From Sporisorium sorghi (taxonomy: Eukaryota; Basidiomycota; Ustilaginomycetes; Ustilaginales; Ustilaginaceae), in the NCBI GenBank assembly GCA_023212695.1, contig JALCCG010000018.1, forward strand, positions 57,062 through 121,061: 64,000 nucleotides of DNA. Reading direction: 5' to 3'. This document shows, piece after piece, positions 20,150 through 28,018 of the stretch. The position numbers were made by a program, and so were the translations under genes. Within the stretch, counting starts at the first letter, position 1; the number at the start of each line of letters is the position of its first letter. A model generated the notes under the pieces. The model was given only the letters and a program-made list of their open reading frames with translations. It did not search any database and was not told where the DNA came from.

Positions 20150-21136
20150 GAACAAGCAGCGCGACCGGATGACTCCATCCCGCCTAGCGGTCCACCCTGA
20201 AAAAGAAATTTCAGCACTTGGACAGTGTGGTCTGGGATCGCAAATCGAAATTTCAAGGAAAATCGAAATTTCGCGACATTTTTGCGCGAGAAAAGGTTGA
20301 GCCGCTCACCAACGGAAAGGCACACACGGAACGAGTCATCCAGCTTCACACCGCAGCAGCTCAGCCTGTGCTCTTCTCTTTGCCTCTCGAGATCTCGATC
20401 TTCGGTCGGGATCATGGACCCGTTCAGCGAGAGCGAGCCTGACGAGGCCCTGGAGCATCATGGTCTTTTTCTCTCATTCAATCTGTTATGCGCGCATCCT
20501 GGTTGGCTGGCTGGTCTCGCTCCTTCTCATCGCTACCTTTTCTGTTCCTTGACGGCACTGTCGTGAGTGGCATTGCTTGCTGTGGCTTTGACTTCATCGT
20601 CTCCACCAAGGCTGAAATGTGGATGAGAAGCAGCACATGACAACCTTCTGACAGTCGACGCTCCAGCTTGCTTTCGATCGAGCCTCGATGACCGGTCACT
20701 GTCCAGGTTGTTCAACATCAGATGATAGGTTCATCTTGTCTTCTCTTCCAGCCGCACTCCTGCTCATCATCATCATCGACGACGACGACGACGACCAGCA
20801 AGTGCTTGGAAACGCTTTTCCGCCGGTTACCAGACCGGTCTGTTTTGCAAAGCGTTTCGCAAGGCTCCCCACCGAAGCGGCAGCTGAAAAGGCCTCGAAA
20901 CCGTTCTCTTTGGATGCATGCATGCATGCTGCTCCAAAAAGACCCTACAGCGATGTGCGTGCATCGAGCTGCATAAAGCCGATTTGCAAGTTCGGATTTC
21001 GTGGCTGCTCGAGTCAAGTTGGGCCGACGAGGAGGCTATCGAGATTAGGCTTTCAATTGTCCCGATTGAGGAAGACCCTAAAAGCTGTATTACCTCAGCA
21101 TGACTTTGGAGAACACTCCACTCACCGAAGCTTACA

Positions 21137-21225
21137 GTAAGTGATCTTCTCGACATTTGCCGCCCGAACTTGGTCTCTCATAGACTTCACTTCTAGCATC
21201 ACCCCTCGCCATACAAGCACCTTAG
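21137..21225 (+). other. Possible intron in the 5' leader of the COQ6-COQ7 gene
   Basis: A strong donor (ACA|GTAAGT at 21137) is followed by acceptor-like CTTCTAG (ending 21196) and CACCTTAG (ending 21225), all upstream of the start codon at 21293. A short upstream frame begins at an ATG at 21100 (MTLENTPLTEAY) and runs into the donor. Either a 5'UTR intron or a small upstream ORF would explain this. No protein homology supports it. Confidence 0.3.
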
Positions 21226-21292: not shown

Positions 21293-24073
21293 ATGTCGAG
21301 ACTAGCACGCACCACCACATCGGCGAGTCATCTCTCAGCAGCCTCGAGTTCGCTGTCGAGGGTCAGTCGCTCCTCACGTTCGGCAAGCGCCATCGCAACA
21401 CAGCGAGGCTTGACCACCTCACGCCAACCACAGCGCAATGCAGTGGCTGGTCCTTCTCGATCAACCTTCTACAGCAATGCGGCAGCACCTTCATCAACTC
21501 TCGCTGTCAGTCCAAGCCTGAGCCGCACTCTGGCAACATCGGCGCCAGTCACAGCCGCGACACACAACATCGACTCTGATATCGTCATCGTGGGAGGAGG
21601 CGTGGTAGGACTTGGTCTGGCATGTGACCTCGTCGCTTCTCAAGCCATCGCCTCACCGGCTCAGCCAGACGCCCACCCAATCACCCTCATCGAAGCCTCC
21701 GATCTCAGCCGTCTCAGGAGCTGGAACACGGACCGCGCATCTACATCCTCCTCCTCGGCCGATGGAATCGACTGGGAGAACCGCGTCATCTCGCTCACAT
21801 CCGAGAACCTCGACTGGCTCAAGCGCATCGGCGTCTATCCTTACCTCGTCGAGCATCGCCTGCGCCCCGTCAACTCGATGCGTGTCTGGGACGGCCTATC
21901 CGGCGCTCTTCTCGACTTTGACTCTGCCGACCTCTCGAGCGCTGCAGGCTCCTCTTCCCAAATCAGCGTCACGGTCGAGATCAGCAACCTCCAGCAGGCC
22001 ATGCTGCGCTTCCTCGAGCACGGACCCGGAAAAGGCATTTGCGAGGTGAAAGACAAGGCGCTGGTCGAGTCGATCGCTGGCGGATCCAAAGTCGAAGCCG
22101 ACAGCTCGTCGATCGAGCAGGACCCTTGGCCTGTTGTGCAGCTCTCGATGGGCGAGGCTGTCCAGGCGCGGTTGCTCGTCGGTGCTGACGGACCCAACTC
22201 GCCCGTACGCAGGTACGCGGGCATCGGCGACTACGGCTGGCCGTACCAACGACGCGGTCTGGTTGGAACGCTTCGATGTCGCGGTGCAGAGGGTGGCGAG
22301 CCCGCCGTCGGGCACACGGCTTATCAGCGATTTCTGCCCAGCGGCACGATCGCCTTGCTGCCGCTCTCGGACTCGACCGGGTCGATGGTGTGGACGCTCG
22401 AGCCCGAGGTGGCAGCCGCCTTGACGCTGCTGCACCGCGAGACGGCTGGGTCTGCAGACGAGCCGCTCGCCAAGCTCGTCGATGCGGCGTTCCGGCTGCC
22501 CTGGTCGTACATCGAGCGGCTGTTTCAGCGCGTCGTGACGTTTACCAAGTATCCGACGCCAGACGGGACACAGCGGAACTGGAACTGGCTCGCTGCAGAG
22601 ATCCCCACCGAAGCCGAGTGGGTCGAGCGAGGCTTGGGCGATCCGTTGCCCGAGAGCGCAACCGGTCAAGTGCCGCCCAAGATCCTCTCGCTCGACGCCA
22701 AGAGCGTCGCCAGCTTCCCGCTTAACCTCAAGCACGCCGACGCCTACCTCGGCGCGTCGCTCAACAGCTCGCCTCTCCTGCCGTCGGGCCTGCTTGCCGG
22801 TGCGATGGCCGCTGTCGGGCTGGCGCCAGAGGGAGCAGGACAGGGTGGAGGTCGCGGACGCACTGTCCTTGTCGGCGATGCGGCACACACCATCCACCCG
22901 CTCGCTGGGCAAGGTCTCAATTTGGGCATTGCCGACGTGCGCTCGCTCTCCAAGACGCTGCGTACGGCGTTGGGGGCGGGTGCGGACATTGGCTCGTACA
23001 ATGCGCTCAAGGGGTATGCGAGGGATAGGTATTGGGAGAACCAGAAGATGCTCTCCGCCGTCGACCATCTGCATTGGCTGTACGCTGGCACGCCGGTACC
23101 GCTTAGCCAGCAGGCGGATGGGGGCAAGGGGCAGAGGGAGCGCGATGGGCTGGCGAGGACGGCGGCCAAGGAGGTCGTGGGCAGAGGAGTGGTGTGGGCG
23201 AGAAGCACGGGTTTGGAGGTGATCAACGAGCTTGGGTTTGTCAAGAATGCGTTTATGCGTCAAGCTGGATCCACCACTTCGACGGCAAGTGCGCCTTGGC
23301 CGACATCACGACGGGCGTATTCGACTGTTCACGGTCGAGGCTTGCATACTCCGTCGTCGCGACCACGACACTCTCTGCCACTCAACGCAGGCTCACAGAA
23401 ACGACACCACTCGTCGAGCCACACCGGCCCGCTAGCATCGGACGCCTACACCGGCGCCCAATCCAGCAGCGACGCAGCGACGACCTCCACGCCCCCACTC
23501 TCCTCCCTCACCCCATCCCAGCAGCGTGCGCTGCAAGACATGCTGCGCGTCGACCATTCAGGCGAGATCGCGGCCAACACGATCTACCAAGGCCAAGCCG
23601 ACATGTTCGGCGCGCTCGGCGACGTCAAAAACCGCGATCTGTCCGTCGAGATGTGGGCGACGGAGAAGAAGCACCTCGACGTGATGCGCGCGTTGCTGCG
23701 GCAGCACAACGTGCGGCCGTCGCTGCTGCTGCCCGTGTGGTCGGTTGCAGGGCGGGTGTTGGGCGGCGTGACGGCGCTGTTGGGCCCGAGGAGCGCGATG
23801 GCGTGCACCGAGGCGGTGGAGAGCGTGATTGGCGAGCACTACGATGATCAGTTGAAGGAGTTGAAGAGCATTCTGGATGAGGGTGGGAAAGAGGAGGTGC
23901 ACCCGTCGCTGCCGCTGCTGTCGGATATCATCAAGGAGTTTCGAGACGACGAGCTGGAGCATCTGGATACGGCGGTGGAGCACGAGTCGCAGCAGGCCGC
24001 GGGGCATGCGTTGCTGTCCGCGGTGATCGCGGCGGGCTGTAGGGGCGCTATCTGGGTCGCTTCTCGTGTGTAG
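21293..24073 (+). CDS. COQ6-COQ7: COQ6-COQ7 fusion: ubiquinone flavin monooxygenase joined to di-iron demethoxyubiquinone hydroxylase
   Basis: Single intronless frame of 926 aa. Residues 1-90 are Arg/Ser/Thr/Ala-rich with almost no acidic residues, a mitochondrial presequence. Residues about 95-640 are Coq6-type: FAD Rossmann motif DIVIVGGGVVGLG, the DG motif LVGADGPNSPVRRYAG and VLVGDAAHTIHPLAGQGLNL. Coq6 hydroxylates C5 of the ubiquinone ring. Residues 739-926 are a complete Coq7: MLRVDHSGEIAANTIYQGQ, EKKHLDVM, CTEAVESVIGEHYDDQL and EFRDDELEHLDTA supply the carboxylate and histidine di-iron ligands for C6 hydroxylation. The linker (about 655-735) lacks acidic residues near its start and contains SRRAYST (672-678), a textbook R-x-Y/S matrix peptidase motif. 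Cleavage after Tyr676 would release a 250-aa Coq7, close to normal size. Both enzymes act on the matrix side of the inner membrane in the CoQ synthome. The fusion is seen; internal cleavage is inference. Confidence 0.95.
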   Translation: MSRLARTTTSASHLSAASSSLSRVSRSSRSASAIATQRGLTTSRQPQRNAVAGPSRSTFYSNAAAPSSTLAVSPSLSRTLATSAPVTAATHNIDSDIVIVGGGVVGLGLACDLVASQAIASPAQPDAHPITLIEASDLSRLRSWNTDRASTSSSSADGIDWENRVISLTSENLDWLKRIGVYPYLVEHRLRPVNSMRVWDGLSGALLDFDSADLSSAAGSSSQISVTVEISNLQQAMLRFLEHGPGKGICEVKDKALVESIAGGSKVEADSSSIEQDPWPVVQLSMGEAVQARLLVGADGPNSPVRRYAGIGDYGWPYQRRGLVGTLRCRGAEGGEPAVGHTAYQRFLPSGTIALLPLSDSTGSMVWTLEPEVAAALTLLHRETAGSADEPLAKLVDAAFRLPWSYIERLFQRVVTFTKYPTPDGTQRNWNWLAAEIPTEAEWVERGLGDPLPESATGQVPPKILSLDAKSVASFPLNLKHADAYLGASLNSSPLLPSGLLAGAMAAVGLAPEGAGQGGGRGRTVLVGDAAHTIHPLAGQGLNLGIADVRSLSKTLRTALGAGADIGSYNALKGYARDRYWENQKMLSAVDHLHWLYAGTPVPLSQQADGGKGQRERDGLARTAAKEVVGRGVVWARSTGLEVINELGFVKNAFMRQAGSTTSTASAPWPTSRRAYSTVHGRGLHTPSSRPRHSLPLNAGSQKRHHSSSHTGPLASDAYTGAQSSSDAATTSTPPLSSLTPSQQRALQDMLRVDHSGEIAANTIYQGQADMFGALGDVKNRDLSVEMWATEKKHLDVMRALLRQHNVRPSLLLPVWSVAGRVLGGVTALLGPRSAMACTEAVESVIGEHYDDQLKELKSILDEGGKEEVHPSLPLLSDIIKEFRDDELEHLDTAVEHESQQAAGHALLSAVIAAGCRGAIWVASRV

Positions 24074-24675: not shown

Positions 24676-26784
24676 ATGCATCTGGCAAAGTCCGTCCTGC
24701 TGGCGGCGGCAATCGCCACGACCAATGTCGTCGGCACTCACCACGTCGATGGATCCAAACTCAAGCAGCAACTCAAGATCCCCGACATCTGGAAGTCTCC
24801 TCTCTTCAAGTCGAGCGGCGGCGGCCTCCCGGGGCTAGGCCCTCCTCTCGGTCCATCCTCTCAAGCCCACGATCCTTCCACCCCCGCCGCCTCGCAACCT
24901 CCCACGACATCGCTCCAAGAAAGCTTTCAAGTCCACGAACCAGCGCCGATCCTCACCGCACCGCTCCACACCTGCTCGGTCACCCTCGTCCAGCGCTCGT
25001 TCGGGAACAGCTACGGCTCGCCGTCCTACCTCGCCTACGACCCGCATTCCGCCTTCTCCGGCACCGCGTGCGCCGACCCTGCCGCGTGGACGGGGCTGAC
25101 GCTCGACGTGCACGGCGAGACCCGAGGTCGCCAGTTCGACCGGCTCGGCACCGTGTGGATCGGCAACAATGCCACGGGCCAGGGCGTCGAGGTGATGCGC
25201 CTTGACAATCCGGAGCCCACGCGCGCCGGGGTGTACTGGGACATCAGCAAAGATGTGGGCAAGTACTGGGCGCTGTGGAGCGCGCGGGCGGATGTGGTGT
25301 TCGACCTGCCGAACATCGTGGATTCGACGTACACGGGTGCGTTGAATGTGACGCTCAAGCTCACCGCGTCGGTGGAAGGTGTTGTGTCGCGGCGCAGCGC
25401 CAAGCTGCACGATCGAAGGGGTGCGTGGGGTACAGCCGCAGCATTGCCGCTGAAACAACGCGCGCCCGACGCAGTGCTCCCGCTGTCCAAACGCCTGCAG
25501 ACCGCCAACTCGGTCTTCCTCCTCGGCGGCAGCGCGGGCAACGGCACCACTACCCTCACCATCCCCAGCAACACAGCCCGCGCAACCGTCGAGCTCTACG
25601 CCTCCGGCACCGCAACAGAAGAGTTCTGGTACACCAACCTCCCAGACAAATTCTACAACCAGATCCCCGACGCGGCAGCGCAAGGCTACTACGCACACGG
25701 CCCCTACCGCGAGGTGCAGCTGTACATCGACTCACGCTTCGCCGGCTACGCTACGCCCTACCCCGTCATTTTTACGGGTGGCATCAACCCGCTCCTCTGG
25801 CGCCCCTCGGCCAACTACGGCACATTCGATCAACCTACGTACAATATCGACATCACGCCGTGGTTGGGCCAGCTGACGGACGGGCGGGAGCACAAGTTTG
25901 AGCTGGCGGTGGTGAGTAGTGAGAGGGGCGGGGGTATTGACGATGCGTCGTGGTTCGTGTCGGGGAGCGTGCAGGTGTATCTGGATGCGTCGGGGAAGAG
26001 GACGACGGGCGAGGTGGTGAAGGTGGTGGGAGGTGCGGAGTATGTGGATGGGTATGTGGGGGGTGAGTTGGAGGGGAACCCGTTGGGGAATGGGTCGTTG
26101 ACGTACGAAGTCGGGCTGAAGAGGGGGAGGGCGTTCGGGGTAGCGGGGAGCGTCAGGACGGGGTCGGGGATCGAGTACGTTGCAGGGTGGTACCAGACAT
26201 CGGAGTACTCGAACAAGGGATTCGTCAACGCGACGGCGCAGATCAACGACCAGAAGAGCTATGGCTGGACGCGCTCGCTCGTGCTCGACGCCGCGCACGT
26301 CGATTCAGCGATGAACGCCAACATCTCGCTCGACGCTCTACAGCCTCTTCGCGGTAACGGCGTGCAGGCGGTGCAGCTCGACTTCAACTACCCGCTGTAC
26401 ATCGCCTCTACCCTCTCGGACACCGCGTTCGACGCGCAGGTCACACAGCAATTCGACCGCACCGTGCGCCGCGCCTCGTACGTCGCTGGGCCGCACGACC
26501 TCGAGCAGATGGTCGGAGACGAGACGACGTTCGTCCACGCCCAGCCTGTGGCAGCTCTGCCGCACGTGACGCTGTCTCAGCGCAAAGAGGAGGCCGACTC
26601 GGTGCTCGTCAACGGCGCGATCGCCAATGGCACGGGCACGTCGTACCAGAGCTTCTTGTATAGGGACATGGCGGGTGGCACGATTGACAGAGAGACGCGG
26701 ACCAACACGACGAGCGTGCTCGAGGATAGCTTGGGCGGGAGTTTGAGGGCCAGAGCCCAGCCTGCGCAGTTGACTGTTGTGTAG
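24676..26784 (+). CDS. Secreted PNGase A-like protein (peptide N4-(N-acetyl-beta-glucosaminyl)asparagine amidase A family)
   Basis: Intronless, 702 aa. It starts with a signal peptide (MHLAKSVLLAAAIATTNVVG). The central region carries PNGase A family landmarks: VTLVQRSFGNSYGSP, RQFDRLGTVWIGN, VEVMRLDNPEPT, GVYWDISKDVGKY, FDLPNIVDSTYTG, EEFWYTNLP, GPYREVQLYIDSRFAGYATP, FTGGINPLLWRP and NIDITPWLGQLTDG. Plant PNGase A removes whole N-glycans from glycopeptides; fungal members are mostly uncharacterised. Several N-x-S/T sequons fit a secretory-pathway protein. There is no C-terminal GPI signal or membrane segment that I can see. Catalytic activity is inferred from family only. Confidence 0.85.
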   Translation: MHLAKSVLLAAAIATTNVVGTHHVDGSKLKQQLKIPDIWKSPLFKSSGGGLPGLGPPLGPSSQAHDPSTPAASQPPTTSLQESFQVHEPAPILTAPLHTCSVTLVQRSFGNSYGSPSYLAYDPHSAFSGTACADPAAWTGLTLDVHGETRGRQFDRLGTVWIGNNATGQGVEVMRLDNPEPTRAGVYWDISKDVGKYWALWSARADVVFDLPNIVDSTYTGALNVTLKLTASVEGVVSRRSAKLHDRRGAWGTAAALPLKQRAPDAVLPLSKRLQTANSVFLLGGSAGNGTTTLTIPSNTARATVELYASGTATEEFWYTNLPDKFYNQIPDAAAQGYYAHGPYREVQLYIDSRFAGYATPYPVIFTGGINPLLWRPSANYGTFDQPTYNIDITPWLGQLTDGREHKFELAVVSSERGGGIDDASWFVSGSVQVYLDASGKRTTGEVVKVVGGAEYVDGYVGGELEGNPLGNGSLTYEVGLKRGRAFGVAGSVRTGSGIEYVAGWYQTSEYSNKGFVNATAQINDQKSYGWTRSLVLDAAHVDSAMNANISLDALQPLRGNGVQAVQLDFNYPLYIASTLSDTAFDAQVTQQFDRTVRRASYVAGPHDLEQMVGDETTFVHAQPVAALPHVTLSQRKEEADSVLVNGAIANGTGTSYQSFLYRDMAGGTIDRETRTNTTSVLEDSLGGSLRARAQPAQLTVV

Positions 26785-26893: not shown

Positions 26894-28018
26894 TTACTTT
26901 TTGCCCTTCTTTTTGCTGTTCTTCTTGTCGTCTTCGGCCTTGCGTTTGGGCGGTGCCGAGCCGGGCTTGACAGTAAAGAACCCATCGAGCCTACCCTGCT
27001 GCTTCCGACTCAACGACTTTTGCAGCTTCTCGCACCCTTTACGCACCCTGTCTTCCGAGAAGCCCTTGTCCTGACACAAGAACTTGACCATGGCTTCCAC
27101 GTCCGGCGCCTCCCATTTCAGCTCCAGGTCCTTGCCCTTCTGCACGTCTGGATTCTCGAAAATCTTCCTCGCTTCCTGGAACGGCCAGTGCTCGGGGATC
27201 TGGACCGACTTTTTGCCCTCTTCCTTGAGATGCTCGACGACGTTCTCGAGCGTCTTGTGCTCGCGGATGAGCTTGAGCGCGGTTTTCGGTCCGATACCCT
27301 TGATGGGATCGAGGTAGTCGCAGCCGAGCAGGATGCAGAGGTCGATGAACTGCGGCATGGTCATCTGCAGCCCTTCGAGCGCTTTGGGCAGATCGACCTG
27401 GTGCACGGGCAGCTTCTTCTGCTCCGACGCAGTAAGATGCTTGAGCAGGATCGGCGTGCCGAACGTGAGCGTGTCCATATCTTCCGAGCCAGCAGCGTAC
27501 ACTTTGCCCGCACGAGCGAGCTCGGCACACTGCGCTTCGGCTTCAGACGGTGCAATGACGCACGGAATGCCCATGAGTTTGAGCAGATGCCTGACTTCTT
27601 CGTTGTGCTGTCGCGTAGGGCGCACCTGTCGTCGTGCGAGCTGATCCATCTTCTCGACATCAGCCACGTCCTTCTGCTCCTCCTCCTGCTCCCTCGCCTC
27701 CTCCCTGCGTCCAAAACGCTTCTGCAGCAGCTCCTTCTTGAGGTCCGGCGGCGTGCCGTCAAAGACGTACATCGGCTTGATGCCGTAGTCGATCATGCGG
27801 AGGGTACGGTAGAAGAAGCCGAGGAGATGCGAGGTTGTCTCGCCCGATTCGGTCATGAGCTGCTGGCCGTCGTTCTGACGAACGGCGATGAGGAACTGAT
27901 AGAGCGACATGGAGGCGTCGATGGCGACTTTGCGACCAAAGTAGGTCTTGATTTCCATCTCTTTGATGGCGCCAGGAGCCTCGTCGGAGATGAGCGCGGT
28001 GAGGCCTTTGATACCCAT
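26894..28018 (-). CDS. FEN1 (RAD27): Flap endonuclease 1
   Basis: Intronless, 374 aa, full length for the family. The product cuts 5' flaps during Okazaki fragment maturation and long-patch base-excision repair in the nucleus. It begins exactly [20 protein letters not shown], as required because the free N-terminus contributes to the fold. Metal-binding acidic residues are all present: [41 protein letters not shown] and [20 protein letters not shown] (helix-hairpin-helix). A PCNA-interacting box QGRLDGFF sits at 341-348, followed by a Lys-rich tail (nuclear localisation). It is divergent from the ATRIP-like checkpoint gene. Confidence 0.98.

What the first reader, a model, noticed from the sequence alone, without database searches (positions are those of the whole stretch)
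21293..24073. COQ6-COQ7 fusion whose linker looks like a buried mitochondrial presequence
Two ubiquinone-ring hydroxylases of different fold (flavin Coq6, di-iron Coq7) are joined in one uninterrupted 926-aa frame, both with intact active-site motifs. The linker carries SRRAYST at 672-678, an R-x-Y/S matrix-processing motif in an Arg/Ser/His-rich, acid-poor stretch. This is just what the presequence of a free-standing Coq7 would look like after gene fusion. The protein may be made as one precursor and cut into two enzymes, as yeast Arg5,6 is, or stay fused to channel intermediates in the CoQ synthome. I do not know of a description of either outcome.
Basis: partly seen in the sequence, partly recalled or inferred. 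Interest (0 to 1): 0.88.

Follow-up and report, generated by a model that had tools for sequence, protein, structure and literature searches.

The report
COQ6-COQ7 fusion with buried presequence
Smut fungi carry two coenzyme Q enzymes in one gene, and the stretch between them keeps the cutting site of the second enzyme's old mitochondrial import tag, so the protein is probably cut in two inside the mitochondrion.

Summary
One 926-codon frame (21293-24073 +) joins a COQ6 flavin hydroxylase (about 93-660) to a COQ7 di-iron hydroxylase (about 739-926). Family searches of this 23.2-Mb genome found no other COQ7 and no other strong COQ6. It is not a misassembly: 26 other protein clusters have the same architecture. 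The 14 named ones are Ustilaginomycetes, and five are already named 'COQ6 and COQ7'. Eight genera of sister classes have separate COQ6 and COQ7 records. The fused COQ7s form one group (support 100/99).

The buried-presequence idea is supported, with a correction. Residues 703-720 (KRHHSSSHTGPLASDAYT) match the presequence/mature junction of free-standing Tilletia COQ7. R-x-H-[S/A]-[S/T] survives in 27 of 28 fused rows while the linker upstream drifts. Upstream of the junction, homology to free-standing presequences could not be shown.

Most likely: one imported precursor, cut by the matrix processing peptidase (MPP) into COQ6 and COQ7, as yeast Arg5,6 is. Cleavage is inferred. A second fusion in this genome, COQ11-COQ10, has a similar-looking linker. 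My paper searches found no description of the COQ6-COQ7 fusion. New member of a known kind.

The parts
21293..24073 (+). COQ6-COQ7 fusion gene, 926 codons plus stop, open without an intron
   Evidence: same architecture in 26 other protein clusters
21293..21568 (+). residues 1-92: likely N-terminal presequence of the precursor (10 R, 0 K, 0 D, 0 E)
   Evidence: AlphaFold pLDDT under 50 for 1-87
21569..23272 (+). residues 93-660: COQ6 flavin hydroxylase, ending at the conserved COQ6 C-terminal motif (...MRQAGS)
   Evidence: 15 of 28 scored free-standing COQ6s end within 9 residues of this motif, the other 13 have tails of 17-78
23255..23257 (+). M655 codon, invariant in 28 of 28 fused rows; weak candidate for internal initiation (T at -3)
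23231..23440 (+). residues 647-716: acid-free run covering most of the linker
23273..23419 (+). residues 661-709: disordered linker, read as the buried COQ7 presequence
   Evidence: pLDDT under 50 for exactly 661-709; composition and site retention; the part upstream of the junction has no significant match to free-standing presequences
23306..23326 (+).
   Evidence: R.[FYL][ST][TS] in 21 of 28 fused linkers
23402..23416 (+). RHHSS 704-708: MPP-type site at the place of the free-standing COQ7 presequence junction
   Evidence: R.H[SA][ST] in 27 of 28 fused linkers; columns 704/706/707/708 = 27, 27, 26, 26 of 28; same place in 7 of 12 free-standing COQ7s with the core motif
23426..23452 (+). GPLASDAYT 712-720: conserved N-terminus of mature COQ7
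   Evidence: shared with free-standing Tilletia COQ7; block 711-720 has mean pLDDT 92
23507..24070 (+). residues 739-926: COQ7 di-iron hydroxylase
   Evidence: Pfam PF03232 746-923; human COQ7 7ssp E 1.4e-37 for residues 741-926

Best explanation
COQ6 and COQ7 fused, most simply once, before the three sampled Ustilaginomycetes orders split. The join lies close after the conserved end of COQ6 and kept at least the downstream end of the COQ7 presequence with its cutting site. The precursor enters the matrix by its N-terminal presequence. The matrix processing peptidase (MPP) removes that presequence and also cuts inside the linker, at R-H-H|S-S (704-708) and probably also at R-R-A-Y|S-T (673-678). 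It releases COQ6 with a short tail and COQ7 with its normal mature N-terminus at about S707, in equal amounts, for the CoQ synthome. Shown: the fusion, its one-group pattern, homology of the linker's end to the junction of free-standing COQ7, and retention of the site. Inferred: import, the cutting enzyme, the cut positions, and that separation is near complete.
For: R-x-H-[SA]-[ST] is kept in 27 of 28 fused linkers, in 23 of these 27 exactly 5 residues before the LASDAY core. The broader pattern R-x-[HYFLI]-[SA]-[ST] within 14 residues of the core is in 27 of 28; 0.87 expected from shuffles that ignore kinship. Site columns are 26-27 of 28 identical against a mean of 0.51 over 661-702. In free-standing COQ7, R-x-[HYF] stands within 8 residues of the same core in 7 of 12 rows, 0.90 expected, and R-x-H-S in 3 of 3 Tilletia rows, 0.03 expected; no set of 5000 shuffles reached either. 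An HMM of 12 free-standing N-termini scores 28 of 28 fused linkers above all 200 of each one's own shuffles, and one cut after LASDAY scores 27 of 28, but this signal comes from the LASDAY side. Upstream of the site the 28 rows hold 178 R/K and 9 D/E in 1203 residues. The AlphaFold model has pLDDT under 50 only at 1-87, 513-517 and 661-709 (segments of 3 or more residues). One COQ7 and no other strong COQ6 in the genome. Fused COQ7s lie on one side of a branch, 100/99. Precedents: Arg5,6 (PMC8847149 and PMC8835746 passages); engineered internal MPP sites RRAFHT/RRAFST, two copies cut better than one in the NifHDK test in E. coli with yeast MPP, and dual sites cut in yeast mitochondria (PMC10450427 passages).
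Against: No cleavage data. An HMM of free-standing presequences without the LASDAY core does not recognise the fused linkers: 4 of 28 rows under 5%, none above all 500 shuffles. Of 16 free-standing COQ7s examined, 8 have R-x-[HYF] ahead of the core; Ceraceosorus (2), Exobasidium and Parajaminaea do not, and four have missing or unusual N-termini. Violaceomyces P0027, the deepest fused row, lacks the site and most of the linker; its model also lacks the COQ6 N-terminus and may be faulty. The linker's largest 18-residue hydrophobic moment is 0.31, under the protein's 95th percentile of 0.45, so a classic amphipathic helix is not evident. H just before the cut is not the classic Y/F/L of the R-3 motif (motif recalled). 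MitoFates and TargetP could not be run.
Confidence: 0.6

Rival explanations
1. The protein stays whole. The linker is a flexible tether, and the two hydroxylases work as one bifunctional synthome subunit.
For: The linker is disordered and long enough to join two folded domains. Violaceomyces, the deepest fused row, appears to have a 40-residue linker without the site. The linker upstream of the junction is not recognisably a free-standing presequence. COQ10-COQ11 fusions in the same family are read in print as a sign of functional relationship (PMC11541779 passages).
Against: A mere tether would not need R-x-H-[SA]-[ST] kept in 27 of 28 rows while linker length in those 27 varies from 43 to 105 residues. 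A second R-x-[FYL]-[ST]-[TS] site is also kept in 21 of 28. MPP can cut a suitable sequence even inside a foreign protein, as with NifD (PMC10450427 passages).
Confidence: 0.26
2. A second product is made by internal initiation at M655 (or from an internal transcript start), giving free COQ7 with the linker as its N-terminal presequence, besides full-length protein.
For: M655 is invariant in 28 of 28 fused rows, but only 7 of the 28 free-standing COQ6s that could be scored (41 examined) have M there. The product would begin MRQAGS...RRAYST, presequence-like.
Against: M655 has T at -3, a poor start context, and 18 other ATG triplets lie between the main start and it. The residues around it (654, 656-660) are nearly as invariant, 27 or 28 of 28, as expected for the COQ6 end.
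Confidence: 0.09
3. Artefact: two genes run together by annotation or misassembly, or separated by an unseen intron or transcript end.
For: Run-on models do seem to occur: 4 of the 30 hits join COQ7 to other, differing partners. Two Ustilaginales-like records are COQ7-only models starting at M750 (P0032, P0033), P0050 is a broken piece, and P0152 loses the COQ7 frame after the linker.
Against: 26 of 30 hits share the same partner and order. Here the frame is open without introns. The linker's junction is conserved as protein.
Confidence: 0.03

Closest known systems
Yeast Arg5,6 precursor (with S. pombe Etp1 and Rsm22-Cox11, and rice SDHB-RPS14)
   Same: Single imported precursor of two mitochondrial proteins. 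For Arg5,6 internal MPP cutting was shown; for Etp1 and Rsm22-Cox11 the review reports internal targeting-like stretches and MPP sites found in silico (PMC8847149 passages); rice SDHB-RPS14 from PMC10450427 passages.
   Different: Here cleavage is inferred. Different pathway and a separate origin in smut fungi. The primary paper (Friedl 2020) was not held.
COQ10-COQ11 fusion of Ustilaginaceae
   Same: A CoQ-synthome gene fusion in the same fungal family (PMC11541779 passages); a matching frame is in this genome (L012:2689-4677 -), with a presequence-like linker by eye.
   Different: Other partners, order COQ11 then COQ10. I saw no statement on cleavage in the passages read.
Free-standing COQ6 and COQ7 of Exobasidiomycetes and Malassezia
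   Same: Homologous enzymes; COQ6 C-terminal motif and COQ7 presequence/mature junction shared.
   Different: Two genes; no linker between them.

Membership tests
COQ7 (PF03232) | Pfam gathering score | tested here: met
   206.5 bits against 23.5
COQ7 (PF03232) | Six di-iron ligands | tested here: met
   E758, E791, H794, E843, E887, H890 aligned with human COQ7 and invariant in the 24 rows of A1; ligand identity recalled
COQ7 (NF033656, DMQ_monoox_COQ7) | NCBIfam equivalog cut-off 180 bits | tested here: not met
   54.2 bits. Five free-standing fungal COQ7s also miss it (64, 68, 62, 63, 53 bits), so the cut-off does not separate fungal COQ7s
COQ6 (TIGR01989) | NCBIfam equivalog cut-off 489.3 bits | tested here: not met
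   296.4 bits. Five free-standing fungal COQ6s or putative COQ6s also miss it (284, 266, 301, 367, 416 bits); TIGR01989 is the top model in all
UbiH/UbiF/VisC/COQ6 hydroxylases (TIGR01988) | Subfamily cut-off 224.65 bits | tested here: met
   271.1 bits
MPP-cut tandem precursor (Arg5,6 type) | Two mitochondrial enzymes in one frame behind an N-terminal presequence | tested here: met
   presequence judged by composition and disorder only
MPP-cut tandem precursor (Arg5,6 type) | Internal MPP-type site with Arg at -2/-3 | tested here: met
MPP-cut tandem precursor (Arg5,6 type) | Internal presequence-like segment upstream of the site | tested here: inconclusive
   Basic, acid-poor and disordered, but amphipathicity is weak and no match to free-standing presequences
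MPP-cut tandem precursor (Arg5,6 type) | Demonstrated internal cleavage into two stable proteins | not testable with these tools
   needs immunoblot or N-terminomics

The most novel reading that the evidence does not exclude
Ustilaginomycetes deliver part of the CoQ synthome as polyproteins. At least two precursors, COQ6-COQ7 and COQ11-COQ10, are each cut by MPP at a presequence buried by gene fusion, so synthome stoichiometry is partly fixed at translation. The COQ6-COQ7 linker uses two MPP sites in tandem, the same arrangement that proved better than one in an engineered polyprotein.
Probability: 0.42. Interest if true: 0.75.

Novelty: new member of a known kind. Interest (0 to 1): 0.57.

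Why it matters
It would be a natural, clade-wide case of MPP-dependent polyprotein processing in quinone biosynthesis, with the cutting site traceable to free-standing relatives. It gives a direct test of whether a presequence keeps working after gene fusion has buried it. With the COQ11-COQ10 fusion it makes the smut CoQ synthome a model for fixed stoichiometry. The linker is also a natural counterpart of the tandem MPP sites used in mitochondrial engineering.

Tried and rejected
Considered and set aside: misassembly (recurrence); direct substrate channelling from COQ6 to COQ7 (steps not consecutive, recalled); the acid-free run as a proof by itself (932 of 20000 shuffles reach 70); the hydrophobic moment, which does not support a strong amphipathic helix. 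Tried and failed: an HMM of 12 free-standing COQ7 presequences cut off before the LASDAY core does not recognise the fused linkers (4 of 28 rows under 5%, 0 of 28 above all 500 shuffles), so my first reading, that the whole linker is a presequence by descent, was too strong. COQ9 was not found with PF08511 or TIGR02396, but neither search had a fungal positive control, so I draw no conclusion. Same-contig linkage in Tilletiaria rests on equal contig lengths only. Structure-library searches were not run; the second structure job was not used. Paper searches that could have shown the fusion in print. One search found one paper, not about a fusion (passages). One search found 6 papers that hold all its terms; I read passages of one (PMC10279924) and judged the other five by the listing. 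One search listed 10, judged by the listing, none on it. One search matched 398 papers and listed 15, none of which holds COQ7. One search found 0. Subscription journals are mostly not held.
Full report
What is there. The frame at 21293-24073 (+) is 926 codons with no stop. COQ7 is at 746-923 (Pfam 206.5 bits). The first 600 or so residues match TIGR01989 COQ6 best (296.4 bits). The NCBIfam equivalog cut-offs for COQ6 and COQ7 are both missed, but five free-standing fungal COQ6s and five free-standing fungal COQ7s miss them too, and the broader UbiH/COQ6 model passes. Flavin motifs and the six expected di-iron ligands are present (ligand identities recalled). The genome (23.17 Mb, 469 contigs) gives one COQ7 match, this one. 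The five COQ6 hits outside this frame are under 38 bits.

Who has it. A search with the COQ7 part, restricted by the tool to proteins of 0.55 to 1.75 times the query protein's length, gave 30 hits. Of these, 26 carry PF03232 and PF01494 together and 4 carry COQ7 with other partners. Fourteen of the 26 are named: Ustilago trichophora (2), U. tritici, U. hordei, Sporisorium scitamineum, S. graminicola, S. reilianum, Kalmanozyma, Pseudozyma hubeiensis, P. flocculosa, Melanopsichium, Testicularia, Thecaphora and Violaceomyces. I looked up nine species, at least one of each of these eight genera; all are class Ustilaginomycetes, from Ustilaginales, Urocystidales and Violaceomycetales. Five are named 'related to Ubiquinone biosynthesis protein COQ6 and COQ7', so the fusion is already in annotation. 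Free-standing COQ7 occurs in 16 named Exobasidiomycetes and Malassezia records, nine genera, among the 120 listed of 3378. Free-standing COQ6 is listed for eight of these nine genera, Ceraceosorus being the exception, among 120 listed of 271. One species of each of the nine genera was looked up. In a COQ7 tree of 51 rows the 27 fused rows lie on one side of a branch, 100/99, with Violaceomyces deepest. The tool warns of long branches, and the bootstrap had not settled.

Exceptions. P0032 and P0033 (93 and 90% identical over 69% of the query) are COQ7-only models that start at M750; P0050 is a broken piece of a fusion. P0152 has COQ6 and the linker but then leaves the COQ7 frame. I could not fetch their DNA; truncated models or sequencing shifts are likely but untested.

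What the linker is. The fusion follows COQ6 to its conserved C-terminal AG[SG] motif (S660); 15 of 28 scored free-standing COQ6s end within 9 residues of that motif, 13 have tails of 17-78 residues. Free-standing COQ7s of Tilletia have CRLHSSSSKSGPLASDAY, TRCHSHSARAGPLASDAYT or TRAHSTSSSSNAPLASDAYT, and Malassezia pachydermatis TRAYSTGKLASDAFT. The fusion has KRHHSSSHTGPLASDAYT at 703-720. An HMM from 12 free-standing N-termini scored all 28 fused linkers above all of their 200 shuffles; cut after LASDAY, it did so for 27 of 28, P0027 (Violaceomyces) failing and P0013 passing narrowly. A stricter check after that went against the broad reading: with the LASDAY core removed, only 4 of 28 linkers fall under 5% and none beats all 500 shuffles. 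So the homology shown is that of the mature COQ7 N-terminus. The site just ahead of it is shared by position: R-x-[HYF] lies within 8 residues of the core in 7 of 12 free-standing rows (0.90 expected), and R-x-H-S in 3 of 3 Tilletia rows (0.03 expected); 0 of 5000 shuffle sets reached either count. Ceraceosorus (2), Exobasidium and Parajaminaea lack it. The linker upstream of about 703 is presequence-like only in composition and disorder.

Which site. R-x-H-[SA]-[ST] is in 27 of 28 linkers and R-x-[FYL]-[ST]-[TS] in 21 of 28; 21 of 28 rows have at least two R-x-[HYFLI]-[SA]-[ST] sites, 0.1 expected from shuffles that ignore kinship. Site columns 704, 706, 707, 708 are 27, 27, 26, 26 of 28; the upstream site columns 673, 674, 676, 677, 678 are 18, 22, 16, 22, 23 of 28; the mean for 661-702 is 0.51. 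It is nonetheless close to the RRAFHT/RRAFST sites engineered as internal MPP sites; two copies cut better than one in the NifHDK test in E. coli with yeast MPP, and dual sites were cut in yeast mitochondria (PMC10450427, passages).

Shape. The AlphaFold model (118-row alignment, mean pLDDT 80.5) has segments with pLDDT under 50 at 1-87, 513-517 and 661-709 only, while the block 711-720 averages 92. The disordered stretch thus ends at the predicted cut. No inter-domain error map was available, so nothing is said on contacts between the two enzymes.

How it works. Most likely the precursor is imported by residues 1-92, cut there, and cut again in the linker by MPP, possibly with trimming by Icp55 (recalled), giving COQ6 and COQ7 one to one. 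Arg5,6 is the tested precedent; the review also lists Etp1 and Rsm22-Cox11 of fission yeast, from sequence (PMC8847149, passages). Internal initiation at M655 is a minor rival: M655 is fixed in fusions, but its context is poor and 18 other ATGs lie between the main start and it.

A second case. The same genome has one PF03364 (COQ10-type) match. Its 662-residue frame L012:2689-4677 (-) starts with a Rossmann Epimerase-type domain (PF01370, 3.2e-06) and ends with PF03364 (7.8e-24). This fits the COQ10-COQ11 fusion reported for several Ustilaginaceae (PMC11541779, passages); calling the first part COQ11 rests on that report, not on a COQ11 model. Its linker reads ...GQRRALSTRPRSSISTRMQRRTFFSLPDLGK..., again presequence-like by eye. 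I had no protein searches left to test it against relatives.

Verdict. A real, one-group, clade-wide fusion that preserves a presequence-type cutting site between two enzymes. It is a new member of a known kind (MPP-cut tandem precursors). The cleavage step is probable but unproven.

Noticed in passing
L012:2689-4677 (-) (G000:C159): COQ11-like plus COQ10 fusion in the same genome, with a linker holding RRALST and RRTFFS, presequence-like by eye; its own N-terminus (MVGTSMQQHTLLVVGGAGFLGS) shows no obvious presequence, unless an upstream exon exists.
   Followed up: partly
G000, whole genome: No COQ9 match with PF08511 or TIGR02396, although COQ9 is the known COQ7 partner (recalled); COQ4 is present. 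Sensitivity on fungal genomes is unknown.
   Followed up: partly
   Followed up: no
P0027 (Violaceomyces palustris): Deepest fused row has a short linker without the R-x-H-S-S site; the model also lacks the COQ6 N-terminus.
   Followed up: partly
window 24676-26784 (+): Neighbouring 702-residue PNGase A-type protein (PF12222, 5.8e-87).
   Followed up: no
window 26894-28018 (-): Neighbouring FEN1/XPG-type nuclease, 374 residues (PF00752, PF00867).
   Followed up: no
window 21100-21196: Possible intron in the 5' untranslated region (GTAAGT at 21137 to TTCTAG ending 21196) and a short upstream ATG at 21100, read by eye (letters checked).
   Followed up: no
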